Part shown: piece after piece, positions 7,881 to 31,950 of the stretch
Position numbering within the stretch: position 1 is the stretch's first letter
Layout: every line of letters starts with the position of its first letter
Source: Verrucomicrobiota bacterium
GTDB taxonomy: Bacteria > Verrucomicrobiota > Kiritimatiellia > Kiritimatiellales > Tichowtungiaceae
Direction: 5' to 3'
DNA: 35,725 nucleotides
Assembly (NCBI GenBank): GCA_016342445.1
Contig: JAEIOF010000007.1
Coordinates: forward strand, 1 to 35,725
Translations under genes and position numbers: made by a program
The notes under the pieces: generated by a model
Told to the model about the DNA's origin: nothing
Database searches by the model: none
What the model saw: the letters and a program-made list of their open reading frames with translations, nothing else

Positions 7881-10727
7881 ATGATAAAAAAAGTAAGAGT
7901 TAAAAAACTGACCGCTTTTACATTCCTGTTGATGACCACGATATCCGCCAACGCACAGGTAAATTTATTGAAGAATCCCGGTTTTGAAAATGGCTGGGGG
8001 TCCCCTTCTGAATGGACTTGCACAATAGATCCATGGGTTTACACCTGGGCCAAACATACCGGCGATTTCGGGCTCTCCATTGATATTGGCTATAGCAGTG
8101 GAACCGGTACTGTTTATCAGGACGTCGCCATTATAGGAAATTCTCCGTACACCTATAATCTATGGGTATCAAAGAATTCTGGCACATCAACAGGCCAGTA
8201 TATCATGAAAATTGAGTGGTATAATGGCGTTACTCTTCTATCAACAGACTCTCTTCCTATCAGTGAGATCTCAGAGGTCTGGAGCCAAAAGACGATCAGC
8301 GCCACCTCTCCTGCAAACGCCAATCTTGCGAGAGTTACGGTCAGCTTTTCAGGCATAAACATTATCGTTAAGTTTGACGACCTTGAATTTATTGGCGCCA
8401 TTCCTCCATTAAACGTCCCTGAAGGTGTGGTAGCCACTGGCCATGACAGTCGAATCGATTTGAAATGGGATCTTGATGCGGACGCAAGTGGCTACAATAT
8501 CTACCGCTCTACTTCTTCAGGTGGCCTCTTTAGCAAGCTGAATACCAGCCTGCACACGGTTGGTGTCTATAGTGATTTTTTTGGCACCAATGATCAGACT
8601 TGTTATTATTATACCACCGCTGTGATTGATGCGCGGGAATCCGAACCGTCGACAACGGTTTCTGCCACGTCCTATGCGATGACCGACGAGCAATTTCTCA
8701 CCTCTTTTCAGGAAGCAACATTTAGATACTTCTGGGATTTCGCTCATCCGGTTAGTGGCGCCATACGAGAGGGGTATATATCCCACGGGACTGAAACATG
8801 CACTACTGGCGGCACGGGTATGGGCTTGATGGCCATTTGTGTTGGTGCAGAACGTGGATTTGTCACCCGAACTGAAGCGGCTGACCGTATTAAAACGATT
8901 TTGACATTTCTGAATACGGATGTGCCCCGTTTTCACGGTGCATGGCCGCATTGGTTTAATGGCACCACCGGTGAATTGATTCAATTTGGCTCACAGGATG
9001 GAGGTGACTTGGTCGAAAGTTCTTTCGTGGCACAGGGGTTATTAACTGTGCGGAAATATTTTGACGGTGCGAGTCAAGTTGAGACCGATATTCGCAACTT
9101 GGCCACCAGCTTGTCGGAAAGTATCGAATGGGACTGGTATCTAAACGGAGGCAATACTCTTCACTGGCTCTGGTCGCCGACGACCGGCTTTGAGCTTCTG
9201 GTTCAGGGCTATAACGAATGCCTGATTACTTATCTATTGGCGATTGCCTCACCGACACATCCAATACCAGCCAGTTGCTACAATAATAGCTGGGCAACTC
9301 TTGCCGATTACAGAAGTAGTGGCACCTATTATGGTTATCGATTATGGGTTGGAGCAGATGCCAGCTATGGTGGCCCGATGTTCTTCACTCATTATTCATA
9401 TTTAGGTTTTGACCCCCGCGACAAGAGAGATGGGTATGCTAATTACTTTGATAACAGCAGAAATATTGCCTTAATTAATCGCGCATATTGCGCCGCCAAC
9501 CCAGGTTCCTTTGTGGGGTACAGTGATTTGGTATGGGGCTTGACCGCCAGCTTTAATCCATGGGGTTATAATGCACACGCACCGGGAGATTCGGATAATG
9601 GCACGATTACCCCAACCGCTGCTATCAGTTCGATGCCCTATACGCCTACGGAGTCTTTAGCCACGTTGAAGCATTTCTATAATACGTATGGTGCTGACCT
9701 ATGGGGTCCATTTGGTTTCTACGATGCTTTTCATCTTGGAGAAAACTGGTTTGCGGACAATTGTTTAGCGATCGATCAAGGTCCGATGTTGATCATGATT
9801 GAAAACTACCGTTCGCAGTTGTGTTGGAATAATTTTATGGCCAACACAGAAATAGACGCAGCTTTACAGGCTATTGGCTGGACGGTTCAGAGCCCTTATG
9901 GTGGAACCCCTCGGGCGATTTCAGGCGCCATTGAGGCTGAAGACTACGACACGGGCGGTGAAGGCATCGCTTACCATGATACTGATACAGGTAATACTGG
10001 CAGCGAATATCGCACCGACGATGTGGATATCGGAGTCTGCCTTGACACGGGTGGTGGGTACAACATTGGTTGGGTTAGTGCGGGCGAATGGCTTGAATAT
10101 ACGGTTGATGTCCAAACTGCAGGTGCGTATAGCATTGAGGTTCGCAGTGCTTCTGGCGGTAGCGGTGCTACCATCCACGTTGAGTTTGATGATGTAGATG
10201 TGACAGGCACGATCAACATTCCTGATACAGGCGGTTGGCAAAACTGGACGACCATAACTAAAAGTGGTGTGAGTCTCAGCGCTGGCCAGCACGTGATGCG
10301 CGTTTCCATCGATTCGGGTGCTTTTAACTTCAATTGGATTAAGTTTATTGCGTTCGATTCCGACAGCGATGGCATGCCCGATGTTTGGGAAACCGCAAAC
10401 GAGTTTAACCCGAATGATGCGGCCGATGCGGATGGGGATGCGGATGGGGACGGCATGAGCAATAAAGCCGAGTATATCTGCCTAACGGATCCAAGAAACA
10501 TTGACTCAACGTTTGAGTTTATGATGGTTGCCCATCCGACAGAGCAAACACTGCAGATTGAGTGGAGTGGAAAAATGGGCCGCGGCTACAACTTGCTTCA
10601 ATCTACCAATCTGACTGAATGGACGACGAATGAGACCTCAATCCGTGGCGAGGGAACTCTCTTGCGCGAGCTCTCCATCTCAAACAAACCAACCGAATTT
10701 TATAGGCTCGAAGCACTGATTGAGTAA
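7881..10727 (+). CDS. Secreted GH144-like endo-beta-1,2-glucanase with CBM6 and C-terminal sorting-type domain
   Basis: A 948-residue multidomain secreted protein. Approximate order: signal peptide 1-25 (basic start, cleavage near ANA-Q); 'NPGFE' carbohydrate-binding-like sandwich 28-172; fibronectin-III module 176-264; glycoamylase-like/GH144 alpha-barrel 266-670; CBM6 678-815 (AIEAEDYD...VSAGEWLEYTVDV...NFNWIKF); Asp-rich thrombospondin-3-type calcium repeats from 826; terminal domain GRGYNLLQS...FYRLEALIE. Barrel hallmarks include TGGTGMGLMAICVGAERG, SQDGGDLVESSFVAQGLL and QGYNECLITYLLA, whose acidic residues (D373, D376, E446) are catalytic candidates. Characterised GH144 enzymes cleave beta-1,2-glucan; a substrate other than that is possible. 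It is first gene of an operon with the next two and has lower GC than the flanks. Confidence 0.85.
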   Translation: MIKKVRVKKLTAFTFLLMTTISANAQVNLLKNPGFENGWGSPSEWTCTIDPWVYTWAKHTGDFGLSIDIGYSSGTGTVYQDVAIIGNSPYTYNLWVSKNSGTSTGQYIMKIEWYNGVTLLSTDSLPISEISEVWSQKTISATSPANANLARVTVSFSGINIIVKFDDLEFIGAIPPLNVPEGVVATGHDSRIDLKWDLDADASGYNIYRSTSSGGLFSKLNTSLHTVGVYSDFFGTNDQTCYYYTTAVIDARESEPSTTVSATSYAMTDEQFLTSFQEATFRYFWDFAHPVSGAIREGYISHGTETCTTGGTGMGLMAICVGAERGFVTRTEAADRIKTILTFLNTDVPRFHGAWPHWFNGTTGELIQFGSQDGGDLVESSFVAQGLLTVRKYFDGASQVETDIRNLATSLSESIEWDWYLNGGNTLHWLWSPTTGFELLVQGYNECLITYLLAIASPTHPIPASCYNNSWATLADYRSSGTYYGYRLWVGADASYGGPMFFTHYSYLGFDPRDKRDGYANYFDNSRNIALINRAYCAANPGSFVGYSDLVWGLTASFNPWGYNAHAPGDSDNGTITPTAAISSMPYTPTESLATLKHFYNTYGADLWGPFGFYDAFHLGENWFADNCLAIDQGPMLIMIENYRSQLCWNNFMANTEIDAALQAIGWTVQSPYGGTPRAISGAIEAEDYDTGGEGIAYHDTDTGNTGSEYRTDDVDIGVCLDTGGGYNIGWVSAGEWLEYTVDVQTAGAYSIEVRSASGGSGATIHVEFDDVDVTGTINIPDTGGWQNWTTITKSGVSLSAGQHVMRVSIDSGAFNFNWIKFIAFDSDSDGMPDVWETANEFNPNDAADADGDADGDGMSNKAEYICLTDPRNIDSTFEFMMVAHPTEQTLQIEWSGKMGRGYNLLQSTNLTEWTTNETSIRGEGTLLRELSISNKPTEFYRLEALIE
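10356..10727 (+). repeat. 372-bp duplicated C-terminal module, copy A
   Basis: Encodes the Asp-rich calcium repeats plus terminal beta domain of the first glycosidase. It aligns without gaps to 14772-15143; about 84% of the encoded residues are identical by eye. Similarity continues past both stop codons into TAAGTG and the following ribosome-binding site and signal-peptide start. Confidence 0.85.
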
Positions 10728-10766
10728 GTGGCGGCTATGTCTGTCTATATATTCCAAGGGGTTAAA

Positions 10767-13700
10767 GTGAACCAAGTGATCTATCTTTTTTTTAAACAAA
10801 TCTTTAACAGGGTAGTTAAAAGGTCGGCCGCGTTTTCATTCCTGATGCTGATGGCGATGGCTGTGGGTGTTCAGGCAAACTTACTGCAGAACCCCGGCTT
10901 TGAGATCAACGCAGGAGGTATTGCTGATAACTGGACATCCACGGGAGAGGCGAGTGCAGAAACTTGGAGCCAACATACCGGCACCTCGGCCATGTGCATT
11001 GCTTCCTGGAGTGGCTCCGGAATCGGTTCTTTTTATCAGGATGTTTCTGTCGAAGGGAATTTGTCGTACACCTACAACCTTTGGATTGAAGCGCTATCGG
11101 GTCAGTACACCATGGAGGTTGAGTGGTATAACGGGGCGACTTATCTTTCAACCGACTCGCTTGCCTTAACAGATACGTCACCAAGCTGGGATAAAAGAAC
11201 GATGAGCGTCACCTCCCCGGCGACGGCGAATTCGGCGAGAGTGAAGGTCAGCTTTTTGATCGGCAGCACCGTTGGCAATCTTGACGATTTCGAATTTGTT
11301 GACGACGCTTACGCTCTCGGCAACCCAAACTTATTACAGAATTCCAACTTTGAGAGCAATGCCAATGGTGGAAGTGCCGCTGAGAATTGGACATCCACGG
11401 AAGAGCTAGCCACGGAAAACTGGGCTGCACATACGGGTGACTGGGGGATGAGCGTGGCTCCGTGGCGTGGTGACGGAACTGGCTATTTCTCCCAGAATGT
11501 TTCCGTAGCAGGAAATTCATCGTACACCTACAATCTGTGGGCGTCGAAGGATACAGGAACCCTGACCGGTCAGTACTTCATGGAGATTGATTGGTATGAT
11601 GGGGCGACCTATCTTTCGACAGATTCATTAATTCTTTCTGACATCTCAGAGGATTGGGCCCAAAAGACAATAAATGTCACCTCTCCAGCAAATGCTACCG
11701 CAGCACGCGTTCTGGTTAGATTTTCCAACGTGGATGTTACTGGCAAATTCGATGACGCAGAGTTTCTTGGTCCCGATGGTGGCGAAACTATTCCAGAGGA
11801 TCCGGATTGGATCAGTGCATCTTCAGAAGAAAACGATACCCCTGCAAAAAATGCCGTGGACGGGAATTCTCTAACGAGGTGGAGCAGCGGGTTTTCTGAG
11901 CCGGAATGGATTACGAAATATATGGGCGTGGGGGGACCCAAAACCATTAACAAGGTTGTGTTAAATTGGGAAACAGCTTGTGCCCAGCGCTATCAGGTCC
12001 AGGTTTCAGAAGACGGTGACACATGGTATACCGTCTATGAAACCCTGAGTGGTACGCCCGGGGTGAAAACAATAAGATTTTCTCCCCTTTCTGTTAGTTA
12101 TGTCAGGATGTATGGGATATCGAGGGCAACACAGTGGGGGATGTCTCTATGGGAATTTGAAGTGTTTGAAACGGCTAATTCACCTGTTCCACTGTCAACC
12201 TACCCCGTTTTTGATGAGTACTCAGTTTTGCCTCTTGTCAAAGGCACTCCGAGTTCGTGGTATGATCTAAAGGCGCAATTAGACCCACGGGGAGAATTCC
12301 CAAGATGGTTCTATGATGAGTTTTCATATTGGACTGTCGTTGGGGATCCGGATACCGAGTTTGAGAGTCTAATATCGGATGAAGGCGTAATTGGTAATTA
12401 CCAAAATGATTTTGCCCTAATCCCCTACCTGTATATTGATGACAACCTAATTAAACCAACCGATGTGAATGTTGTAATTCTTCCGCTGGAAGATGGCTAT
12501 TTGCCCATACCGACTGTTCGATGGGCTTGGCCGGGCGGCATTACGTTTGATCAGAAGCTCTTCTCGTCCAGTGATAACGATAAGGCATATAATAACATCT
12601 GGTACACCTTAGAGAACACAAGCGGCTCTAGTATTACAGGCAAGTTGTTTTTGACCGTCAGACCTTTTCAAGTAACTCCCGACTGGATGTATGGCGGATA
12701 TGTGGACGCGATCAATTCCATTGAAGGCTCCGGCAATATTGTTAAGGTTAATGGGACTCATGGTTTCGCCGCGCTGACTGCGCCGGATAGCTTTGGCGCC
12801 TTGTCCTATGAAAATGGCGATGTAATGGATTCTATCCGGGTCGGCAACGTTCCCGCAGAAACAAACATTACCAGTGCAGTGGGATTTGCAAGTGCAGCAT
12901 TATCCTACGATCTAAACATCGGTGCGGGTGCTACGGCGGAATACAAATTTATAATTCCATCCTTCGAGGATGATATCAACAGCTTCAGCTTACCGTTAGA
13001 CGATGCGAGTTTTAATACCACTTATACCTCATCTAAGGCGTCATGGGTAACCCTTCTAAACCAGGTTGATATTGACATCCCCAACACGGACCTTATCAAT
13101 GCGCTTAAGAGTAATATTGCCTATATTCTAATCAGTAAAGATGGGCCGACTCTCCAGCCTGGTTCAAGAAACTATGATCGATCCTGGATAAGAGATGCTG
13201 CCGTGATGGGCATCTCTCTACTAAAAGCAGGACAAGACCCGCAAATAATTAAAGATTTTATCAATTGGTATACACCGTTCCAGTACGCCGATGGCCGTAT
13301 TCCGCCTGTACTGCATTCAGAAGGGTTTGAAGCCGACAGGGATAAGGTGATCAATGAGTATGATGCACAGGGGGAATACATCTATTTAATTGCAGAATAT
13401 TACAGATATACTGGCGATCAGGCATTTTTGGAAGAGGTGTATCCTGCCATTATCAAGGCGTTGCAGTATGCCGAAGAACGCAGAAGCACACGGTTGGCAG
13501 GGTATGAAGGAACCCGGTTTTATGGCATCTTGCCGGAATCCATCAGTCATGAAGGTTATCCCGAACCTGGAATGCACAGTTACTGGGATGATTACTGGGT
13601 CATTAGAGGCTGGGAAGAAGCGATCAAGATCGCGCAACTTCTGAATCATCCAACGGACGTTGCCTGGATGGAAAACGAACTGGATAACAGTGTAACTGGT

Positions 13701-15143
13701 TTCAGGAAGTGTCTTACAGATTCAACCGCACTGGCGATGCAGATGGGTGGAATCTCATACATCCCGGGATGTGCTGATACGTATGATTTTGATGCCACTT
13801 CTACGGCGATATGCGTATGGCCAACGGAACAGGATCATTTACTCGACGCCGATGACATGATGTTCACGCTTGATAAATACTATAATGAAATATTCATTCC
13901 TCGTGATGTAAATGGTGCGATATATGGCTATACCCCATACGAATTGAGGACAGCCTCAGTTTATACCATGTTAGGTCATAAAGAGAAGTCGTTGAGGATG
14001 CTGAACTACTTCCTTCAGGATCGTCGTCCTCTAGAGTGGAATCATTGGGCTGAATCCGTGGAGCCAATTTACCGGGATCCTCGGTATTTAGCCGAAATGC
14101 CTCATGCATGGATAGGTGGAATCTATAACAACGCAGTACTGAATCTATTTATCTATCCAAAGAATGATGCGCTTATTCTCGGTGCTGGGATCGACGAGCT
14201 TTGGCTTGATACACAACCTGTAACGGTTGCGAATTCACCGAGTTATTACGGCAACGTTAGTTATACGATCACGAAAATTAATGATGTTATAGCGGTCGAT
14301 GTCACAGGAACAGCCACCCCGCCTAATGGGTTTGTGTTTAAATACCCAATCGTAGGGCAGTCAATCGGATATGTTAGAGTTAACGGAGAGGAATGGGTCG
14401 ATTTTACAACGACGGAAGTTTCTTTCACAAACCTTCCGGCTGCCATTAGAATATATCTGGCCCCTCCCCCCAGTGAAACAACACCTCCAACGCCAGATCA
14501 GATGACGTTTGCAATTGCTCCTTATGCGACAGGCACTAGTTCGATAGCGATGGTTGCTTCAACAGCATCTGATGCCAATGGAGTTGAATACTATTTCACC
14601 TGTACTGCAGGCGGTGGTCATGACAGCGGATGGCAGGCTAGCGCATCATATACAGATACTGGCTTGACCCCACTTACACAGTACACATACACGGTTACAG
14701 CTCGAGACCTGAGTGCAAACCAGAATGCAACAGCTCCGTCAACAGGCGCTTCTGCCACCACCGAGATGACGGATTCTGACGGCGATGGCATGTCTGACGA
14801 ATGGGAAACCGCAAACGCGTTTAACACGAATGATGCGGCCGATGCGGATGGGGATGCGGATGGGGACGGCATGAGCAATAAAGCCGAATTTATTTGCCTA
14901 ACGAATCCGAGAGACATTGACTCAAAGTTTGAGTTTATGATGGTTACCCATCCGACAGCGGACATGCTACGGATTGAGTGGAGCGGCAAAGCAGGCCGAG
15001 GCTACAATTTGCTTCAATCAACGAATCTGATTGAATGGACGACGAATGAGACCTCAATCCGTGGCGAAGGAATTCTCTTGCGCGAGCTCTCTATCTCAAA
15101 TGAACTAACTGGATTTTACAGGCTCGAAGCACTGATTGAGTAA
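10767..15143 (+). CDS. Large secreted six-hairpin glycosidase-like protein, family unassigned
   Basis: About 1458 residues. Start chosen at GTG 10767 after AAGGGG, because the next gene begins with the same MNQ(V/I)IYLF context. Order: signal peptide to about 36 (VGVQA-N); two tandem 'NPGFE' modules 37-185 and 187-335; discoidin (F5/8C) domain 345-475 (ASSEENDTPAKNAVDGN...RWSSG); beta-sandwich to about 760; alpha-barrel 773-1140 with GSRNYDRSWIRDAAVM, DGRIPPVLH and NEYDAQGEYIYLIAEYYRYTGD; beta domain; fibronectin-III 1235-1330; the same calcium-repeat/FYRLE end as its neighbour. Sandwich plus (alpha/alpha)6 barrel is seen in GH15, GH63, GH65 and GH94-type enzymes, but I cannot place it in a family. 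Context suggests action on beta-1,2-glucan or an oligosaccharide from it. Codon use is AT-rich. Confidence 0.8.
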   Translation: MNQVIYLFFKQIFNRVVKRSAAFSFLMLMAMAVGVQANLLQNPGFEINAGGIADNWTSTGEASAETWSQHTGTSAMCIASWSGSGIGSFYQDVSVEGNLSYTYNLWIEALSGQYTMEVEWYNGATYLSTDSLALTDTSPSWDKRTMSVTSPATANSARVKVSFLIGSTVGNLDDFEFVDDAYALGNPNLLQNSNFESNANGGSAAENWTSTEELATENWAAHTGDWGMSVAPWRGDGTGYFSQNVSVAGNSSYTYNLWASKDTGTLTGQYFMEIDWYDGATYLSTDSLILSDISEDWAQKTINVTSPANATAARVLVRFSNVDVTGKFDDAEFLGPDGGETIPEDPDWISASSEENDTPAKNAVDGNSLTRWSSGFSEPEWITKYMGVGGPKTINKVVLNWETACAQRYQVQVSEDGDTWYTVYETLSGTPGVKTIRFSPLSVSYVRMYGISRATQWGMSLWEFEVFETANSPVPLSTYPVFDEYSVLPLVKGTPSSWYDLKAQLDPRGEFPRWFYDEFSYWTVVGDPDTEFESLISDEGVIGNYQNDFALIPYLYIDDNLIKPTDVNVVILPLEDGYLPIPTVRWAWPGGITFDQKLFSSSDNDKAYNNIWYTLENTSGSSITGKLFLTVRPFQVTPDWMYGGYVDAINSIEGSGNIVKVNGTHGFAALTAPDSFGALSYENGDVMDSIRVGNVPAETNITSAVGFASAALSYDLNIGAGATAEYKFIIPSFEDDINSFSLPLDDASFNTTYTSSKASWVTLLNQVDIDIPNTDLINALKSNIAYILISKDGPTLQPGSRNYDRSWIRDAAVMGISLLKAGQDPQIIKDFINWYTPFQYADGRIPPVLHSEGFEADRDKVINEYDAQGEYIYLIAEYYRYTGDQAFLEEVYPAIIKALQYAEERRSTRLAGYEGTRFYGILPESISHEGYPEPGMHSYWDDYWVIRGWEEAIKIAQLLNHPTDVAWMENELDNSVTGFRKCLTDSTALAMQMGGISYIPGCADTYDFDATSTAICVWPTEQDHLLDADDMMFTLDKYYNEIFIPRDVNGAIYGYTPYELRTASVYTMLGHKEKSLRMLNYFLQDRRPLEWNHWAESVEPIYRDPRYLAEMPHAWIGGIYNNAVLNLFIYPKNDALILGAGIDELWLDTQPVTVANSPSYYGNVSYTITKINDVIAVDVTGTATPPNGFVFKYPIVGQSIGYVRVNGEEWVDFTTTEVSFTNLPAAIRIYLAPPPSETTPPTPDQMTFAIAPYATGTSSIAMVASTASDANGVEYYFTCTAGGGHDSGWQASASYTDTGLTPLTQYTYTVTARDLSANQNATAPSTGASATTEMTDSDGDGMSDEWETANAFNTNDAADADGDADGDGMSNKAEFICLTNPRDIDSKFEFMMVTHPTADMLRIEWSGKAGRGYNLLQSTNLIEWTTNETSIRGEGILLRELSISNELTGFYRLEALIE
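14772..15143 (+). repeat. 372-bp duplicated C-terminal module, copy B
   Basis: Partner of 10356-10727, equal in length with no gap. The most conserved stretch is the block encoding DAADADGDADGDGMSNKAE, identical between the copies. The duplication also spans the junction to the next gene. Confidence 0.85.
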
Positions 15144-15176
15144 GTGACGACTTCTGCCTATACCCAAGGAATTAAA

Positions 15177-17369
15177 ATGAACCAAATCATCTATCTTTTT
15201 TTACTCGCTGTATCGTTCTGTTTTTCTGTGCAAGCCGATACGGTTGAGCGCTTGCTCGAGAAAATGACGCTGGATGAAAAAATAGGTCAGCTGAATCTTT
15301 ACTCGAGCCCTTGGGAAAATACGGGACCGATTGAGGGCAGAAGCTATGTTTCTGAGGTGCGTTCCGGTCTGTGCGGCAACATTTTAAATCTGATCAATGT
15401 GGGTCATGTCCGTCAGATGCAACGACTGGCTGTAGAAGAAAGCCGACTGGGAATTCCCCTGCTGTTCGGCTATGACGTGATTCATGGCTATAAAACGATC
15501 TTCCCGATTCCGCTGGGTTTGGCGTCGTCCTGGGATATGGGCGCGATCGAAAAAGCGGCCCGCATCGCGGCAGTTGAGGCGGCGGCCAGCGGTATCAACT
15601 GGACGTATGCCCCAATGGTGGATATTGCCCGCGACCCGCGCTGGGGGCGTATTGCGGAGGGAGCCGGGGAAGACACGTTTCTGGCGTGTGAAGTGGCGAA
15701 AGCCAACGTCCGTGGATTCCAAGGTGACGACCTCGCTGAGATTTCCACCATTGCCGCCTGTGTGAAGCACTTTGCCGCTTATGGTGCGGCACAGGCCGGA
15801 CGGGATTATCACACCGTTGACATGTCAGAGCGCATGCTGCGCGAAACCTATCTGCCGCCCTTCAAAGCGGCACTCGATGCCGGGTGTGTTAGCGTGATGA
15901 CGGCCTTTAATGAACTCGACGGAATTCCAGCCACGGCAAATCCGTTCCTGCTTAAAACCGTTCTGCGCGATGAATGGAACTTTGACGGCGTGGTGGTGAC
16001 GGATTACTCCTCGATTAATGAAATGCTCAATCATGGCTCGGCCGCAGATCAGGCGGATGCCGCGGCGCAGGCGCTGGTTGCCGGCGTGGATATGGATATG
16101 ATGAGCTCAGCCTATGTCTATCATCTAAAACAGTTGCTGACAGAGGGGCGCGTCACGATGGATCAGATTGATGAGTCCGTTCGAAATGTGCTGCGGCTGA
16201 AGGAAAAGCTTGGCCTTTTTGATGACCCGTATCGCTATTGCGATGAACAGCGCGAGCAAGAAAAGCAATATGCCAAGGAGCACCTGGACGCGTCGTATGA
16301 GATTGCGGGAAAATCCATGGTGCTGCTCAAGAACAGCAACCAACTTCTCCCGCTGGATGAAGGAACGCGCATTGCACTCATCGGCCCGTTAGCCACTGCG
16401 CGAGGCGATCTGCTCGGCACCTGGGGCGCTCGCGGCAATTGGGAAATGGCAACCTCTGTCCTCGACGCGATGAGTCAGCTTAACGGGCACGACCGAGTGG
16501 ATTATGCGCAAGGATGCGGAGTCGAAGGAACCGACATCTCCGGCTTTGCCGAAGCCGTTGCACTGGCCGCAAAAAATGACGTGGTCGTTATGGTACTGGG
16601 GGAGACCGCAGGAATGAGCGGCGAAGCATCCAGCCGAAGCCGCATTGGTCTGCCGGGCGTACAGAGTGAGCTGCTCGAGGCCGTTGCCCAGACCGGAAAG
16701 CCAATCGTGGTGCTCCTTCTGAATGGCCGCCCGCTCGCACTGGAAAAAGAACAGGCCTTTGCCGATGCAATTTTAGAAGCCTGGCATCCGGGCACGGAGG
16801 GCGGCAAAGCCGCTGCCGACATGCTATTTGGCAAGCTGGTGCCTTCCGCAAAATTACCCGTCACCTTTCCGCGCAGCTTGGGTCAGGTGCCGATCCACTA
16901 CAATATGAAGAATACCGGGAGACCCCAGAACCCCGTTGATCCGTTTCCGTATGTATCGCGCTACATGGACTGCCCCAATGACCCGCTCTACCCCTTCGGG
17001 TTTGGCCTCAGCTACACGGAATTCCGCTATTCAGAGATCAGGCTCGATAAAGCCGAACTCAAACCGGGCGAAACACTGACGGCATCGGTAACGGTTTCCA
17101 ATGTTGGGGACGTTGACGGGGAAGAAGTGGTGCAGCTGTATATCCAAGATCTCGTCGGCAGCGTCACGCGCCCGGTCAAGGAGTTGAAGGGCTTTAAAAA
17201 AATCCTGCTGAAGAAAGGCGGAAGCCAGACCGTTGAATTTCGCATCGGCGAAAAGGAGCTTACATTCTTACGGCGCGATATGACCTGGGGCACAGAACCC
17301 GGCGATTTCAAGGTCTTCATCGGAACTAACAGTCGGGATGTAAAAACCGCAGTGTTTACCCTGCGCTAA
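15177..17369 (+). CDS. Secreted GH3 beta-glucosidase (BglX-like)
   Basis: Glycoside hydrolase family 3 exo-beta-glucosidase, 730 residues. The signal peptide MNQIIYLFLLAVSFCFSVQA has no basic residue, which is unusual. The N-terminal TIM barrel includes MTLDEKIGQL, GIPLLFGYDVIHGYKTIFP, ARDPRWGRIAEGAGEDTFL, CVKHFAAYG and the nucleophile region VVVTDYSSINEM (D276). The second domain contains VVVMVLGETAGMSGEASSRS, PVTFPRSLGQVPIHYN and YPFGFGLSYTEF, followed by the fibronectin-III-like end. It lacks the calcium-repeat/FYRLE domain of its two neighbours, suggesting a periplasmic rather than surface location. Start ATG 15177 follows AAGG; only 33 bases separate it from the preceding stop. Its base composition matches the genome flanks better than the first two operon genes. 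Confidence 0.94.
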   Translation: MNQIIYLFLLAVSFCFSVQADTVERLLEKMTLDEKIGQLNLYSSPWENTGPIEGRSYVSEVRSGLCGNILNLINVGHVRQMQRLAVEESRLGIPLLFGYDVIHGYKTIFPIPLGLASSWDMGAIEKAARIAAVEAAASGINWTYAPMVDIARDPRWGRIAEGAGEDTFLACEVAKANVRGFQGDDLAEISTIAACVKHFAAYGAAQAGRDYHTVDMSERMLRETYLPPFKAALDAGCVSVMTAFNELDGIPATANPFLLKTVLRDEWNFDGVVVTDYSSINEMLNHGSAADQADAAAQALVAGVDMDMMSSAYVYHLKQLLTEGRVTMDQIDESVRNVLRLKEKLGLFDDPYRYCDEQREQEKQYAKEHLDASYEIAGKSMVLLKNSNQLLPLDEGTRIALIGPLATARGDLLGTWGARGNWEMATSVLDAMSQLNGHDRVDYAQGCGVEGTDISGFAEAVALAAKNDVVVMVLGETAGMSGEASSRSRIGLPGVQSELLEAVAQTGKPIVVLLLNGRPLALEKEQAFADAILEAWHPGTEGGKAAADMLFGKLVPSAKLPVTFPRSLGQVPIHYNMKNTGRPQNPVDPFPYVSRYMDCPNDPLYPFGFGLSYTEFRYSEIRLDKAELKPGETLTASVTVSNVGDVDGEEVVQLYIQDLVGSVTRPVKELKGFKKILLKKGGSQTVEFRIGEKELTFLRRDMTWGTEPGDFKVFIGTNSRDVKTAVFTLR

Positions 17370-17469: not shown

Positions 17470-17691
17470 AATGAGTTCGCACTCCCCACTGGATAAAACA
17501 TTATGAAGTGCATTGAAAAAGGTATAGCAAGCCACCCTCCGGTCAAATGACTTTTGATCAGTTGCCTGCGAACTGCAGATGGATAGCGCCCAGCTCTCCA
17601 GACCGGTCATGGAAACATAAGCGACGACGATTTACTAACCGTCGACAGCACCGGCTCACTAAGCGGAGGGGATTTCCCCCTCCGCTTTTTT
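17470..17691 (+). ncRNA. Candidate structured RNA or long structured 3' UTR
   Basis: No open frame of note. Inverted repeats: AGTTCGCA 17474-17481 with TGCGAACT 17567-17574 (perfect, 8 pairs); inside it GGTCAAA 17541-17547 with TTTGATC 17553-17559 (one G-T pair); then CGACG 17622-17626 with CGTCG 17640-17644; then a terminator hairpin. The layout resembles an independent small RNA of about 220 bases, but it matches no family I recognise (not tmRNA, RNase P, SRP). It could equally be the operon's 3' UTR. No clear promoter was found. Confidence 0.3.
17661..17691 (+). terminator. Strong Rho-independent terminator
   Basis: AAGCGGAGGGG pairs perfectly over 11 bases with CCCCTCCGCTT around a 5-base loop and is followed by a T-run on the plus strand. 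It ends transcription from the glycosidase operon or the candidate RNA before the opposing birA gene. Confidence 0.9.
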
Positions 17692-18771: not shown

Positions 18772-20577
18772 ATGGCTAAAAAAACGATTCACATTATGAA
18801 CACCGCATTCCGCGACGGCTTTCAATCGGTCTACGGTGCACGCGTACTCACCGAAGACTTTCTGCCGGCTGTCAAAGCCTGTGTGGAAGCGGGACAAACT
18901 CACTTTGAAGCGGGCGGCGGCGCACGTTTCCAGGCTCCCTTTTTCTACTGCAACGAAAGCGCATTCCATATGATGGATCGTTTTCGTGAGGTCGCAGGGC
19001 CTGATGCCGACCTGCAAACGCTCGGCCGCGGAATCAATGTGGTAGGTCTCGACTCCCAGTCGCGCGACATCATCGACCTGCATGCCAAGATGTTCAAAAA
19101 GCACGGCATCACCACCATTCGCAACTTCGACGCCCTCAACGATGTCAACAATCTGTTCGACTCCGGCAAATCGATCAACGCGCACGGCCTGAAACACGAA
19201 GTGGTTGTCACGATGATGGAACTGCCGCCCGGCTGCTCCGGCGCGCACGATGTCGCGTTCTACCAGAGAACCCTTGAGCAAATCATGAAAGCCGGCGTTC
19301 CGTTTGATAGCGTCTGCTTCAAGGATGCCTCCGGAACCTCCACCCCGAAAAAAGTCTACGAGACCATCGCGATGGCTCGCAAGATGCTCCCGTCTGAAAC
19401 CAAGCTGGTTTTCCACTCCCACGAAACCGCCGGTGTCGGAACCGTCGGCTATATCGCCGCGATCAAAGCCGGTGCGGATCAGGTCGACTGCTCCCTCGCC
19501 CCGGCCTCCGGCGGAACCTGCCAACCCGACGTCGCCACCCTCTGGCACGCCCTGCGCGGTGAAGACTACGAACTCGATATCGATATCGACAAAATGATGC
19601 ACGCCGCCAATGTCTTCAAAGGATGCATGGCCGATTACTTCGTTCCGCCGGAAGCACTCGCGGTGGAACCGATGATCCCGTGGTCGCCGATGCCCGGTGG
19701 CGCGCTGACCGCCAACACCCAGATGTTGCGCGACAACGGCATCATGGACAAATACGAAGACTGCATCCACGCCATGGGCGAAGTCGTCCGCCGCGGTGGA
19801 TTCGGAACCTCCGTAACACCGGTTTCCCAGTTCTACTTCCAGCAGGCCTTTAACAACGTCATGTTCGGCCCGTGGGAAAAAATTGCGGAAGGCTACGGCA
19901 AAATGGTTCTCGGCTACTTCGGTAAAACCCCGTGCGAACCCGATCCGGAAATTGTCAAGCTCTCCGCCGAGAAGCTCGGACTCGAGCCGACCACCGAAAA
20001 CCCGGTCGACATCAATGACCGCGACCCGAACAAGGGAGTGGACGCCGCCAAAAAACTTCTCACCGACGCGGGCATCACCGATCAGTGCGATGAAAACGTG
20101 TTCATTGCCGCAACCTGCAAGCAGAAGGGCATCGACTTCCTGCTCGGCAACGCCAAGGTCAACGGCGTTCGCAAAGGAGCCCTCACCCCTGCCGCCGAGG
20201 CCGCTCCGGGAGGCGACGGTGCCTATACGGTCACCGTTGACGGCAAGAAATTCGCGGTTGAAGTTAAAGGCGACAAAGCAACCGTCAACGGCAAAGCCTA
20301 CGACGTGAATGTGGCTGACGGCGTTGAAGCCGCCGCGCCCGGCGTTGCCCACGAGTCCGCCGACTCCACCATCGTCAAGGCGCAGATGCCCGGCAAAGTG
20401 ATGAAAGTCAACGTTGCCGCCGGCGATCACGTCAATACCGGCGACGTACTGCTCGTCATGGAAGCCATGAAAATGGAAGTTGAAATCAAGGCTCCGGTCA
20501 GCGGAACGGTTTCCTCCATCGCGGTCAAAGTCGGCGACCAAGCCGTTGGCGGCCAGGACCTCGCCTCGATCAATTAA
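18772..20577 (+). CDS. oadA: Oxaloacetate decarboxylase alpha subunit (carboxyltransferase + biotinyl domain)
   Basis: Transfers the carboxyl group of oxaloacetate to biotin; soluble part of the Na+ pump. At 601 residues it has the carboxyltransferase barrel ([10 protein letters not shown], catalytic CFKDASG, metal ligands in FHSHETAGV), the PYC_OADA region ([38 protein letters not shown]) and a C-terminal lipoyl-like domain with EAMKMEVE, biotin on K567. From memory the barrel, with EAGGGARFQ and [10 protein letters not shown], resembles campylobacterial pyruvate-carboxylase-B/OadA-type proteins more than enterobacterial OadA. No biotin carboxylase gene is adjacent, and OadG and OadB flank it, so decarboxylation is favoured. 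AAGGAG precedes the start. Confidence 0.92.
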
Positions 20578-20590
20578 GGAGATCTTTCCC

Positions 20591-22108
20591 ATGTTTAAAA
20601 TGAAGAAGACACTCGGGCTGATCGCCCTCGTCGCCGCGCTGATGGCCGGTTTTGCCGTTGCGGACACAAGTTGCGGAAGCGAAGCCTGCACGCTCCCGCA
20701 AACCGAAACAGCACCTAAAGATGGCATTTCGATTAGCAAGGGGTTTTATACCCTTTGGCAATCGACCGGAATCTATCGGTTCATGAATCCTGAAACACCG
20801 GCGGAAAAACATATCGCCTATCAGGATGCCTGCATCAAAACCGTTGAAGCGGAAATCTCGGTCGGTCACTTCGCCAATGCGCACACCGTGATTGAAAAAT
20901 CGGTGCAACATGGCGTGGAACAAGCCGTTATCGCAGATCTGAGCGCAAAACTAACTGTCGCCGAAGCAGAGGGCTACACACCACACGGCTTGCTGCCGGA
21001 AGGCGCGGGTCAGTTTGTAATGATCCTGATCGGGCTGCTTTTGATCTATCTGGCCATCGCCAAGGGCTTCGAGCCTCTGTTGCTTTTGCCGATTGGTTTC
21101 GGAGCCATCCTCACCAACATTCCGGCCGCCGGAATTGCTATGGGCCCGATGCCCGGACAGCCGGCTGGTTTCCTCTATTATTTCTACACCGTCGGTGTGC
21201 AATCCGGAGTCTTCCCGCTGCTCATCTTTATGGGTGTGGGAGCGATGACCGACTTCGGCCCCCTGCTCGCCAACCCGAAAACCGCCCTGCTCGGCGCCGC
21301 CGCACAGTTCGGCATTTTCATTGCCCTGCTCGGCGCATTGGCTCTGACCGGCTGGACCAATGGGGTAGTGAACTTCTCACTGCAGGATGCGGCCTCCATC
21401 GGGATCATTGGCGGGGCGGATGGTCCGACTGCGATTTTCCTCTCCTCGCGACTCTCGCCCAACCTGCTCGGCGCCATCGCCGTGGCGGCTTACTCCTATA
21501 TGGCACTCGTGCCGATCATTCAGCCGCCGATTATGCGACTGCTCACCACCAAGCAAGAGCGCGCGATTGAAATGAAACAGTTGCGTCACGTCAGCAAGAC
21601 CGAAAAAATTGTCTTCCCGCTGATGGTGCTGATTCTCTGTATTCTGTTGCTTCCGTCGGCCACCCCGCTGATCGGGATGCTGATGCTCGGTAACCTGATG
21701 AAGGAATCCTGTGTGGTTGATCGTCTGTCCGATACCGCCCAGAACGCACTCATCAACATTGTCACCATCATGCTCGGGCTGGCGGTCGGCTCCAAACTGG
21801 CGGCCGACAAATTCCTGAACGCGAACACCCTCGGCATTCTTGCCCTCGGCCTGATCGCCTTCATGATCGGCACCGCCTCCGGCGTGTTGCTCGCCAAGCT
21901 GATGAATAAGTTCTGCAAGGACAAAGTGAATCCGCTGATCGGCTCTGCCGGCGTATCGGCTGTGCCGATGGCCGCGCGCGTCGCCAACAAAGTTGGGCTC
22001 GAAGCCAACCCGCACAACTTCCTGCTCATGCACGCCATGGGCCCGAATGTTGCGGGTGTGATCGGCTCCGCCGTCGCCGCCGGGGTTTTGCTGGCTCTGT
22101 GCGGATAA
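20591..22108 (+). CDS. oadB: Na+-pumping oxaloacetate decarboxylase beta subunit with N-terminal extension
   Basis: Polytopic membrane subunit that decarboxylates carboxybiotin and exports Na+. The conserved core starts near residue 130 ([34 protein letters not shown]) and includes [14 protein letters not shown], the Na+/carboxyl site [15 protein letters not shown] (D277) and [14 protein letters not shown] near the end. At 505 residues it is longer than the usual approximately 430. The extra N-terminus has a signal-like hydrophobic segment ending [16 protein letters not shown] and a soluble region with STGIYRF. The start ATG 20591 has AAGGAG nine bases upstream and follows the oadA stop by 13 bases. 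Transcription ends in a palindrome-based terminator downstream. Confidence 0.93.
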
Positions 22109-30236: not shown

Positions 30237-30776
30237 ATGCTTGTATCAGAACGCGAACAACTGCGCGCGAACATCGAGCGACAGGTGAAGGAATTCGGCA
30301 ACGACCGCAGCGCCCTGATTCCGGTCCTGCAGGACGTGCAGCACAAATACGGGCATGTCTCGGAATATGTGATGCAGGTGGTGGCGGATATTCTCCACAT
30401 CCACCCGGTTGAAGTCTACGGGGTTGCCTCCTTCTACAGCTTTATCGGCCACAAACAAAAAGGCCGCTTCATCATCCGCCTCTGCCGCACCATCTCCTGC
30501 GACATGCAGGGCAAAGACCGGGTCGCCCGTCAGCTCGAAAACGATCTCGGCATTCAATTCGGAGAAACCACACCGGACGGCAACTTCACACTGGAATGGG
30601 CCAACTGCCTCGGCATGTGCGATCAGGGCCCCGCCCTGCTCGTCAATGAACGGATCTACACCAAAGTCACCCCGGAAACCGTGCACGACATTCTCGAAGA
30701 GTGCCGCACCCTGTTCGGAGTCTATGCACTTCAGGAAAAGGAGACGCTATGCGAACTACCGACACCAGTAAAATGA
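30237..30776 (+). CDS. hydC: Hydrogenase HydC subunit (NuoE-like, 2Fe-2S)
   Basis: Thioredoxin-fold 2Fe-2S subunit, 179 residues, of a multimeric NAD-linked [FeFe]-hydrogenase. ALIPVLQDVQHKYGHVSE, VYGVASFYSFI and the four-cysteine site CRTISC...CLGMC are the NuoE hallmarks. It passes electrons between the flavin subunit and HydA. AAAGGAGG lies six bases before the ATG. Its 3' end overlaps hydB by 28 bases. Confidence 0.93.
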   Translation: MLVSEREQLRANIERQVKEFGNDRSALIPVLQDVQHKYGHVSEYVMQVVADILHIHPVEVYGVASFYSFIGHKQKGRFIIRLCRTISCDMQGKDRVARQLENDLGIQFGETTPDGNFTLEWANCLGMCDQGPALLVNERIYTKVTPETVHDILEECRTLFGVYALQEKETLCELPTPVK

Positions 30777-31939
30777 CGTTCTCCAGAGTGAGTCCCGGCG
30801 AGGGCCTTAAAAAAGCGCTGAAGATGACCCCGGAGGAAATCATCGACCTCATAACCGCATCCGGCCTGAAGGGCCGCGGCGGGGCGGGCTTTCCCACCGA
30901 TTTAAAATGGAAGCTGGCAGCCGCGGTCAAAGACGACCTGAAATATGTGGTCTGCAATGCCGACGAAGGAGAGCCGGGAACCTTTAAGGACCGCGTCATC
31001 CTGACCGACTTTGCCGACCTGATGTTCGACGGCATGACCATCGGCGCCCGCGCCATCGGAGCCTGCAAAGGCATCATCTATCTGCGCGGCGAATACGCCT
31101 ATCTGCGGAGCTTCCTGAAAGGAAAACTCGCGGAGCGGCGCAACGACGGACTGCTGGGAAAAAACGTGCTGGGTATCGCCGGCTTCGATTTCGACGTCGA
31201 AATCCGCATGGGGGCCGGCGCCTATATCTGCGGCGAGGAAACCGCCCTGATTGAATCGCTCGAAGGACAGCGCGGTGAACCGCGCAACCGCCCGCCCTTC
31301 CCCGTCAACACCGGCTTCATGGGTCATCCCACCATCGTCAACAATGTCGAAACCTTCACCTGGGTTCCCTGTATCGTCACCAAGGGAGCAAAATGGTTTT
31401 TTGATATCGGCACGGAACGATCGACCGGGTTGAAAATGTTCAGCGTCTCCGGCGACTGCGGCAAACACGGCGTGTTTGAATTCCCGATGGGCATCACCAT
31501 TCAGGAACTGCTCGAAAAAGTGGACGGAACCGGCGCAAAAGCCGTACAGGCGGGCGGCGCGTCCGGACGCTGCATACCGGCCTGCAGCTTCGGCCGCACC
31601 ATCGCCTTCGAAGATGTGCCGACCGGCGGTTCCATCATTGTTATCGGACCGGATCGCGACATGCTCAAAGTGGCCGAAAACTTCATGGAATTTTTCCTCG
31701 ATGAGTCGTGCGGCCAATGCACGCCCTGCCGCGAAGGCAACGCCAAGCTGCTCGAAGGCATCAAACTTCTGCAGCAAGGCCGCTGTTCCATGAAATATCT
31801 GCGCGAACTCTGCAAGCTGGGCGAAACCATGCAGCTCGCCTCCAAATGCGGGCTCGGGCAATCCAGCCCGAACGCATTTCTCTCCATCGTCACGAAATTT
31901 AAAGATGAAATTATGGGCCGCACCGAAACCGCCCTATAG
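30749..31939 (+). CDS. hydB: Hydrogenase HydB subunit (NuoF-like, FMN/NADH)
   Basis: NADH- and FMN-binding subunit, 396 residues. Present: GRGGAGFPTDLKWKLAA (NADH loop), CNADEGEPGTFKDR (FMN), YICGEETALIESLEGQRGEPR, and the 4Fe-4S site ESCGQCTPCREGN. The N-terminal thioredoxin-like domain and the C-terminal two-cluster ferredoxin domain of bifurcating HydB from Thermotoga-type enzymes are missing, so this is the short NuoF-sized form. The start 30749 has AGGAG five bases upstream; a second ATG at 30773 overlaps the hydC stop as ATGA and is an alternative. Confidence 0.93.
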   Translation: MRTTDTSKMTFSRVSPGEGLKKALKMTPEEIIDLITASGLKGRGGAGFPTDLKWKLAAAVKDDLKYVVCNADEGEPGTFKDRVILTDFADLMFDGMTIGARAIGACKGIIYLRGEYAYLRSFLKGKLAERRNDGLLGKNVLGIAGFDFDVEIRMGAGAYICGEETALIESLEGQRGEPRNRPPFPVNTGFMGHPTIVNNVETFTWVPCIVTKGAKWFFDIGTERSTGLKMFSVSGDCGKHGVFEFPMGITIQELLEKVDGTGAKAVQAGGASGRCIPACSFGRTIAFEDVPTGGSIIVIGPDRDMLKVAENFMEFFLDESCGQCTPCREGNAKLLEGIKLLQQGRCSMKYLRELCKLGETMQLASKCGLGQSSPNAFLSIVTKFKDEIMGRTETAL

Positions 31940-31950
31940 GAAGGATCCCC

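What the first reader, a model, noticed from the sequence alone, without database searches (positions are those of the whole stretch)
13083..14200. Six-hairpin barrel in the second glycosidase may be an unassigned glycoside hydrolase family
The barrel has clear catalytic-looking motifs (SWIRDAAVM, DGRIPPVLH, NEYDAQGEYIYLIAEYY) behind a beta-sandwich, plus discoidin, fibronectin-III and two NPGFE modules, yet I cannot place it in a known family. Its position between GH144-like and GH3 genes suggests a new activity on beta-1,2-glucan or a decorated form.
Basis: inference. Interest (0 to 1): 0.55.

Follow-up and report, generated by a model that had tools for sequence, protein, structure and literature searches.

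The report
Unassigned GH15-like enzyme in glucan operons
This gene encodes an exported sugar-cutting enzyme from a widespread but unnamed family that resembles starch-type glucosidases yet keeps turning up beside enzymes that break down bacterial beta-1,2-glucan, so it is probably a missing step in eating that polymer.

Summary
In detail: window 10728-15143 (+) encodes a multidomain protein with a six-hairpin (alpha/alpha)6 barrel, between a GH144-type gene and a GH3 gene in what looks like one operon. Over its catalytic part no curated Pfam or NCBIfam cut-off is clearly passed (one Pfam model sits on its threshold). Profile comparison and a confident AlphaFold2 model of the barrel place it nearest GH15. 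The GH15/GH65 catalytic set is present: Tyr816, Asp823, acid candidate Glu942 (alpha5-alpha6 loop), base candidate Glu1109 (alpha11-alpha12 loop), each in 96-97 of 99 aligned relatives. It is therefore probably an inverting exo-glucosidase of an unnamed GH15-related family. The beta-1,2-glucan link is strong: relatives recur beside GH144, 1,2-beta-oligoglucan phosphorylase, other GH94, GH35 and GH3 genes across many phyla, with one natural fusion to GH144. In the phylum sample 8 of 17 strong members, against 0 of 59 GH78 control places, lie within 20 kb of a GH144-type or SOGP gene. What stays open is the bond cut. GH15 and GH65 hydrolases act on alpha-glucosides while the context is a beta-glucan: the substrate is either the beta-1,2 bond itself or an alpha-linked decoration or closure. 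No activity has been shown.

The parts
7881..10727 (+). Upstream GH144-type glycosidase (PF10091) with CBM6/CBM35-like module; ATG 7881
   Evidence: Pfam E 4.3e-72; start context
10767..15143 (+). The protein under study ('X'); likely start GTG 10767 (mechanical start 10728)
10767..10877 (+). Signal-peptide-like N-terminus (read by eye, no predictor run)
10881..11312 (+). First N-terminal module (NPGFE), similar to the N-terminal module of the GH144 gene
   Evidence: 47% identity over 166 aligned positions
11328..11798 (+). Second N-terminal module (NSNFE)
   Evidence: 53% identity over 157 aligned positions to the GH144 gene's module
11811..12155 (+). F5/8 type C (discoidin) domain
   Evidence: Pfam E 1.7e-20
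12330..12959 (+). N-terminal beta-sandwich domain of the catalytic unit
   Evidence: AlphaFold2 model, mean pLDDT 90.0, pTM 0.91
13002..13058 (+). Helical linker
   Evidence: model secondary structure
13086..14150 (+). (alpha/alpha)6 barrel, the catalytic domain
   Evidence: barrel alone: mean pLDDT 91.1, pTM 0.92
13173..13175 (+). Tyr816, counterpart of TtGA Tyr337 (seven residues before the Asp in both)
   Evidence: 96 of 99 aligned relatives; PMC8626586
13191..13196 (+). Arg822-Asp823 (SWIRDAAVM), subsite -1 contact on helix alpha2
   Evidence: 96 of 99 each; PMC8626586
13551..13553 (+). Glu942 (SHEGY), candidate general acid, alpha5-alpha6 loop
   Evidence: 97 of 99; loop; role inferred
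14052..14054 (+). Glu1109 (NHWAE), candidate general base, alpha11-alpha12 loop
   Evidence: 96 of 99; aligned with the GH15 AEQ motif; role inferred
14220..14297 (+). C-terminal strands of the catalytic unit
   Evidence: model
14340..14603 (+). FN-III-like stretch (by eye; no Pfam hit)
   Evidence: absence
14772..15140 (+). C-terminal module with TSP3 repeat, near-copy of the GH144 gene's C-terminus
   Evidence: 84% identity over 123 aa
10356..10792 (+). 437-nt repeat, first copy: end of GH144 gene, stop, spacer, start of X
   Evidence: 86.7% identity to 14772-15202
14772..15202 (+). 437-nt repeat, second copy: end of X, stop, spacer, start of GH3 gene
15177..17369 (+). Downstream GH3 gene (likely start ATG 15177)
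   Evidence: Pfam E 1.4e-77, NCBIfam BglX 847 bits
17661..17687 (+). Terminator-like stem (11 pairs, 8 G-C, T-run) behind the GH3 gene
   Evidence: a consensus match

Best explanation
X is an exported, exo-acting, anomer-inverting glucosidase whose barrel is a remote relative of GH15, working as one step of beta-1,2-glucan utilisation. Inferred mechanism: the GH144-type enzyme from the same operon cuts the polymer; X binds a non-reducing-end glucose in its pocket through Tyr816, Arg822 and Asp823; Glu942 protonates the leaving oxygen; Glu1109 activates a water that attacks from the other face; the GH3 enzyme finishes the small products. Shown: fold by prediction, residue conservation, genomic linkage. 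Inferred: activity, inversion, exo action and substrate. On the bond I lean slightly to the beta-1,2 bond of gluco-oligosaccharides (about 55:45) over an alpha-linked glucose on or in the glucan.
For: Fold and residues: barrel model mean pLDDT 91.1. GH15 structures lead both barrel searches: Foldseek isomaltose glucohydrolase 5z3e E 2.5e-08; VIA dextran dextrinase 9ju0 Z 34.7, rmsd 2.8, 336 aligned. Profile-profile against 7 GH15 sequences E 6.2e-12, against 3.8e-07 (GH78), 2.4e-06 (GDE), 2.9e-05 (SOGP), 0.054 (GH65), 0.15 (GH144). Acid and base candidates sit in the loops stated for GH15 and GH65 (PMC8626586, PMC12446779), kept in 97 and 96 of 99 relatives. Linkage: SOGP in 8 of 9 strong-member genomes against 4 of 185 others. 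GH144 or SOGP genes in 36 of 80 public loci, 17 of the 25 with at least 20 kb, plus one X-GH144 fusion (fusion confirmed by PF10091). PF10091 in 6 of 6 further member genomes. GH94 with two supersandwich domains beside or near X in 4 of 4 proteobacterial loci scanned. X and its GH144 neighbour share end modules.
Against: No activity data. GH15 and GH65 hydrolases act on alpha-glucosides (PMC8626586, PMC12446779), which sits badly with a beta-glucan. PMC12446779 warns that the two catalytic Glu of GH15 relatives do not by themselves tell inverting from retaining enzymes. The full catalytic unit has GH94 at the top of Foldseek (E 1.6e-18), and VIA ties GH65, GH15-like, GH95, GH78 and GH94 (Z about 24-27). 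Of 80 public loci 36 showed none of the five neighbour families, one of these being the fusion. 9 of 17 strong phylum members have no GH144-type or SOGP gene within 20 kb. The five nearest rows to the window protein in the tree have no such neighbour.
Confidence: 0.65

Rival explanations
1. X is an inverting alpha-glucosidase that removes or opens alpha-linked glucose attached to or closing beta-1,2-glucans, for example the alpha-1,6 bond of alpha-1,6-cyclised beta-1,2-glucans after GH144 has cut the ring.
For: GH15 and GH65 hydrolases act on alpha bonds, and the residues described for them are present. The top barrel matches include alpha-1,6-acting GH15 enzymes: isomaltose glucohydrolase 5z3a-e and glucodextranase 1ug9 (specificities per PMC12446779). 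A GH3 beta-glucosidase is already next door. Alpha-1,6-cyclised beta-1,2-glucans are known (PMC11842490).
Against: Known producers named in the review are few, whereas X is spread over many phyla. Fold rank does not show specificity.
Confidence: 0.3
2. X releases sophorose rather than glucose from beta-1,2-gluco-oligosaccharides and hands it to the GH3, GH94 or GH35 partner.
For: GH35 genes lie near X in 7 of 80 loci, 6 of them directly adjacent; the Ignavibacterium GH35 enzyme uses sophorose as donor (PMC8861115). A sophorose-releasing exo enzyme exists in GH144 (PMC11842490).
Against: GH15 enzymes release single glucose units (PMC12446779); no subsite data for X.
Confidence: 0.15
3. X is a divergent GH15 alpha-glucosidase for ordinary alpha-glucans and its place in the operon says little.
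For: Nearest relatives by profile are GH15; 43 of 46 barrels match the NCBIfam oligosaccharide amylase model weakly, best 6.3e-15.
Against: Recurrent beta-1,2-glucan neighbours on separate branches (at least 16 label changes forced by starred branches), a fusion to GH144, and 0 of 59 GH78 places with such neighbours.
Confidence: 0.1
4. X is a phosphorylase related to GH94.
For: GH94 leads the Foldseek list for the whole catalytic unit.
Against: A Glu at the base position in 96 of 99 relatives, where FjGH65A has its base and GH65 phosphorylases bind phosphate (PMC8626586); weak profile similarity to SOGP.
Confidence: 0.05
5. Some members are non-catalytic glucan-binding proteins.
For: 2 of 99 relatives have Pro at the Glu942 position.
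Against: The window protein keeps all the candidate residues.
Confidence: 0.04

Closest known systems
GH15 (isomaltose glucohydrolase 5z3a, glucodextranase 1ug9, bacterial glucoamylase 1lf6; dextran dextrinase 9ju0 as a homolog)
   Same: Barrel fold, beta-sandwich in front, acid and base loops, Tyr and Asp of subsite -1
   Different: About 14-15% identity in structure alignments; PF00723 not listed for the window protein at E 1; lies in beta-1,2-glucan loci
GH65 hydrolases (FjGH65A alpha-1,2-glucosidase)
   Same: Domain plan and catalytic loops
   Different: Profile similarity near absent (E 0.054); 12-14% identity in structure alignments
GH94 phosphorylases, including SOGP and the C-terminal part of cyclic glucan synthase
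   Same: Supersandwich plus barrel; beta-1,2-glucan metabolism; frequent neighbours
   Different: X has a Glu at the base position; profile E 2.9e-05 to SOGP, covering the barrel and its end only
GH144, GH162, GH189, GH192-194 (beta-1,2-glucanases and transferase of the SGL clan)
   Same: Six-hairpin barrel, beta-1,2-glucan role, GH144 as operon partner
   Different: Catalytic part is a barrel alone, as published (PMC12102758); no profile similarity of X to GH144 (E 0.15); the other families were not compared
Ignavibacterium album beta-1,2-glucan cluster with IaSGT (PMC8861115)
   Same: Same partner families (GH144, GH94, GH35, sugar-binding protein) as in X loci
   Different: The passages I read name no X-like gene; whether one is present was not determined

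Membership tests
GH15 | Passes the family sequence model | tested here: not met
   PF00723 not listed for the window protein at E 1; 10 of 46 barrels at E 0.001, best 3.3e-05, bit scores not shown; TIGR01577 30.5 bits against a cut-off of 820.7
GH15 | (alpha/alpha)6 barrel behind a beta-sandwich and helical linker | tested here: met
   predicted model; GH15 leads barrel matches
GH15 | Acid Glu in alpha5-alpha6 loop and base Glu in alpha11-alpha12 loop | tested here: met
   Glu942 and Glu1109 by position in a predicted model and conservation; criterion from PMC12446779; role not assayed
GH15 | Tyr between alpha1 and alpha2 and Asp on alpha2 | tested here: met
   Tyr816 and Asp823, 96 of 99 each; criterion from PMC8626586
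GH15 | Hydrolysis of terminal alpha-glucosidic bonds with inversion | not testable with these tools
   needs enzyme assay
Clan GH-L | Shared fold and sterically conserved acid and base | tested here: inconclusive
   order and loops agree, but side-chain distances were not available from the model
GH65 | Sequence similarity to the family | tested here: not met
   profile E 0.054 against 7 sequences; PF03632 in 1 of 26 members at E 0.17
GH94 | Passes PF17167 or PF06165 | tested here: not met
   not listed for the window protein at E 1 nor among the 18 families matched by the 26 members
GH94 | Phosphate site in place of a general base | tested here: inconclusive
   a Glu occupies the base position in 96 of 99; phosphate use not assayed
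GH144 (PF10091) | Passes the family model | tested here: not met
   no PF10091 match for the window protein; profile E 0.15 over 19 columns
GH162, GH189, GH192-194 (rest of the SGL clan) | Sequence similarity to characterised members | not tested
   no models or sequences of these families were compared; PDB profile searches named none of them, which excludes nothing

The most novel reading that the evidence does not exclude
X founds a new glycoside hydrolase family in a group whose named GH15 and GH65 relatives cut alpha-glucosides, but it cuts the beta-1,2 bond of gluco-oligosaccharides with a GH15-type acid-base pair, so the glucose must sit turned over in the pocket: a switch of anomer specificity on an unchanged catalytic frame.
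Probability: 0.35. Interest if true: 0.75.

Novelty: new variant of a known kind. Interest (0 to 1): 0.57.

Why it matters
Beta-1,2-glucans serve in symbiosis, pathogenesis and osmotic adaptation, and several of the known enzymes for their breakdown were found by following gene clusters (PMC11842490, PMC8861115, PMC12369401). X is a recurrent, uncharacterised gene of such clusters in many phyla, including isolates of Luteibacter and Methylocaldum. Either answer to the bond question would be new in the papers I could search: a beta-acting member of an alpha-type group, or an enzyme dedicated to alpha-linked parts of beta-1,2-glucans. The second would also offer a tool for alpha-1,6-cyclised glucans. 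The open question is directly testable with published substrates.

Tried and rejected
Rejected: an artefact or pseudogene (one long open frame, conserved across phyla). Rejected: a plain GH94 or GH144 member. Dropped count: single-linkage clustering gave 39 of 80 loci with GH144; part of that cluster was small non-GH144 proteins (the one scanned was PEP-CTERM only), so I use the profile count of 33 of 80. Whole-unit fold ranking is not decisive, so the barrel was folded alone.

An OpgG/OpgD partner was looked for in the Luteibacter locus: none among the 5 proteins scanned there. VIA absence of a family is not used as evidence.

The strong-member cut at E 1e-90 was chosen after seeing a gap between 2.8e-95 and 3.6e-48. 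Genomes are related, so the Fisher p-values (1e-10, 1.8e-07, 1.3e-06) overstate independence. PF10091 counts include long cyclic-glucan-synthase-like frames of about 2,900 aa, the only match in G101. The GH15 profile rests on 7 sequences and its E-value is for one comparison. The labels for the tree were typed; L066, L091 and the GH94-only loci were scored as 'none'.
Full report
What was checked. The open frame 10728-15143 (+) of 1471 aa contains the quoted motifs. Pfam finds a discoidin domain at 362-476 and a TSP3 repeat; over the catalytic part it gives only amylo-alpha-1,6-glucosidase (PF06202) at 18.8 bits, below its cut-off of 21. Trimmed to the catalytic unit the same model scores 21.1 and on the barrel alone 20.6, so it lies on the threshold. 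NCBIfam gives oligosaccharide amylase at 27.9 to 30.5 bits against a cut-off of 820.7. A search of PDB sequences with the single protein found nothing at E 10; profiles of relatives gave weak matches to several six-hairpin enzymes, best 7e-05.

The operon. GH144-type gene (7881-10727), X and GH3 gene (to 17369) lie on one strand. The likely starts of X (GTG 10767) and of GH3 (ATG 15177) leave spacers of 39 and 33 nt, and a terminator-like stem follows at 17661-17687 (12 such sites found against 9.1 expected in shuffles, so this is weak on its own). A 437-nt stretch that covers the end of the GH144 gene, the stop, the spacer and the start of X (10356-10792) recurs at 86.7% identity as the end of X, the stop, the spacer and the start of GH3 (14772-15202). 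The GH144 and X proteins share a C-terminal module at 84% over 123 aa and N-terminal modules at 47-53%, so they are probably exported and placed alike. That is an inference from shared modules.

The family. In 194 genomes of the phylum, 18 have a match at E 1e-10 and 9 of these hold 17 strong places (E below 1e-90), the window included. One paralog lies in the window's own genome.

Fold and active site. The model of the catalytic unit has mean pLDDT 90.0 and pTM 0.91. Against solved structures the whole unit matches GH94 first in Foldseek, and GH65, GH15-like, GH95, GH78 and GH94 about equally in VIA, Z about 24-27 at 8-15% identity. The barrel alone (mean pLDDT 91.1) matches GH15-type enzymes first: Foldseek ranks 1-7 are isomaltose glucohydrolase entries (named so). 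VIA gives dextran dextrinase Z 34.7 (rmsd 2.8, 336 aligned), isomaltose glucohydrolase 32.0 (rmsd 3.0, 321), glucoamylase 31.2 (2.8, 316), glucodextranase 30.9 (3.2, 325), then GH116 30.5 (2.9, 332), GH125 30.2 (3.4, 339) and GH65 29.8 (3.1, 325). Rows within 1 of each other are tied, so only dextran dextrinase stands clear. Profile-profile comparison with sets from the same phylum gives GH15 E 6.2e-12 over 364 columns, ahead of GH78 3.8e-07, GDE 2.4e-06, SOGP 2.9e-05, GH65 0.054 and GH144 0.15.

In GH15 and GH65 the acid lies in the alpha5-alpha6 loop and the base in the alpha11-alpha12 loop, with an Asp on alpha2 and, in TtGA, a Tyr seven residues before it (passages of PMC8626586, and PMC12446779). 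In X the corresponding loops of the model hold Glu942 and Glu1109; Asp823 lies at the start of alpha2 and Tyr816 stands seven residues before it. Over 99 aligned sequences Glu942, Glu1109, Asp823 and Tyr816 are kept in 97, 96, 96 and 96. hhalign pairs the X stretch around Glu1109 with the GH15 AEQ stretch directly; around Glu942 its gap placement is ambiguous, so the acid rests on loop position and conservation. Two of 99 relatives have Pro there. PMC12446779 shows that the same two Glu can also serve a retaining transferase, so inversion is inferred.

The beta-1,2-glucan link. (1) SOGP_N (PF21958), the N-terminal domain of 1,2-beta-oligoglucan phosphorylase, is in 12 of 194 phylum genomes: 8 of the 9 strong-member genomes and 4 of the other 185; PF10091 is in 9 of 9 and 29 of 185. 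(2) 8 of 17 strong X places lie within 20 kb of a SOGP or PF10091 gene; of 59 GH78 places listed from 18 genomes searched (the 9 strong-member genomes among them), none does. (3) In the 80 public loci profile searches find GH144 in 33, SOGP in 5, other GH94 in 17, GH35 in 7 and GH3 in 7; GH144 or SOGP in 36; any of the five in 44. GH144 is directly adjacent on the same strand in 15. (4) L073 (8774-13978) encodes X and GH144 in one 1734-aa frame. (5) In Competibacteraceae, Methylocaldum and a Rhodospirillales MAG the next or nearby gene is a GH94 with two supersandwich domains in 4 of 4 scanned, the arrangement I recall for the C-terminal part of cyclic glucan synthase. (6) Six of six further member genomes hold PF10091. 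(7) On a tree of 99 members the label needs at least 16 changes forced by starred branches, so it is not one lineage's habit. It is also clustered (19 changes against a shuffled mean of about 33).

Against this, 36 of 80 loci show none of the five families (one of them is the fusion), many on short contigs but some on 22 kb. The tree places the window protein next to members from Omnitrophota and Auribacterota without such neighbours, although one of those genomes, that of L055, has four PF10091 matches. Subfamilies may differ in substrate.

How it likely works. An exo-acting pocket enzyme with a GH15-type acid-base pair is the best reading. The bond is open. Context favours beta-1,2-gluco-oligosaccharides; the catalytic frame favours an alpha-glucoside, which could be an alpha-linked part of a beta-1,2-glucan. 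A Glu at the base position argues for a hydrolase over a phosphorylase.

Literature. Searches of the open-access library returned no paper whose listing describes a GH15-like family in beta-1,2-glucan clusters. I read the abstract and two sections of PMC12102758, the abstract and two sections of PMC11842490, and passages of PMC8861115, PMC12369401, PMC8626586, PMC12446779 and PMC11228985; other papers were seen only as listings. Subscription papers and CAZy itself were not searchable, so an existing family assignment cannot be excluded.

Noticed in passing
window 10356-10792 and 14772-15202: A 437-nt repeat (86.7% identity) joins gene end, stop, spacer and next gene start at both junctions of the operon, which suggests that the operon grew by duplication of an end-module plus junction.
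   Followed up: partly
L073 8774-13978: Natural fusion of the X catalytic unit with a C-terminal GH144 domain in an Omnitrophota MAG.
   Followed up: yes
L045 3275-8881: 1868-aa frame with a full X unit and, at its N-terminus, a weak six-hairpin match (PF17389, residues 34-241); its phmmer score (693 bits) is far above its single tblastn match (398 bits), so it may hold a second, cut-off X barrel.
   Followed up: no
L057, L090, L096, L117: Two or more X-like frames in one locus.
   Followed up: no
L047 and L048 (genomes G095, G068): Divergent clade of X; two of 99 aligned members carry Pro in place of the candidate acid, seen directly for the G095 member, so some may be inactive.
   Followed up: partly
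L014-L019, L025, L026: A more distant set (21-26% identity), frames of about 760-830 aa; possibly a separate uncharacterised six-hairpin family.
   Followed up: no
L055 8328-8966 and similar small frames in L050, L054: Small frames of about 215 aa upstream of X in Omnitrophota and Auribacterota; the one scanned carries a PEP-CTERM motif.
   Followed up: partly
L127 3170-4789: Tryptophan halogenase gene next to the GH144 gene in the Luteibacter X locus.
   Followed up: no
window 18772-22108 and 30701-33870: Carboxylase/biotin-carrier and Na+-transporting oxaloacetate decarboxylase beta genes, and an iron-only hydrogenase with a NuoF-like partner: suggests a fermentative host.
   Followed up: no
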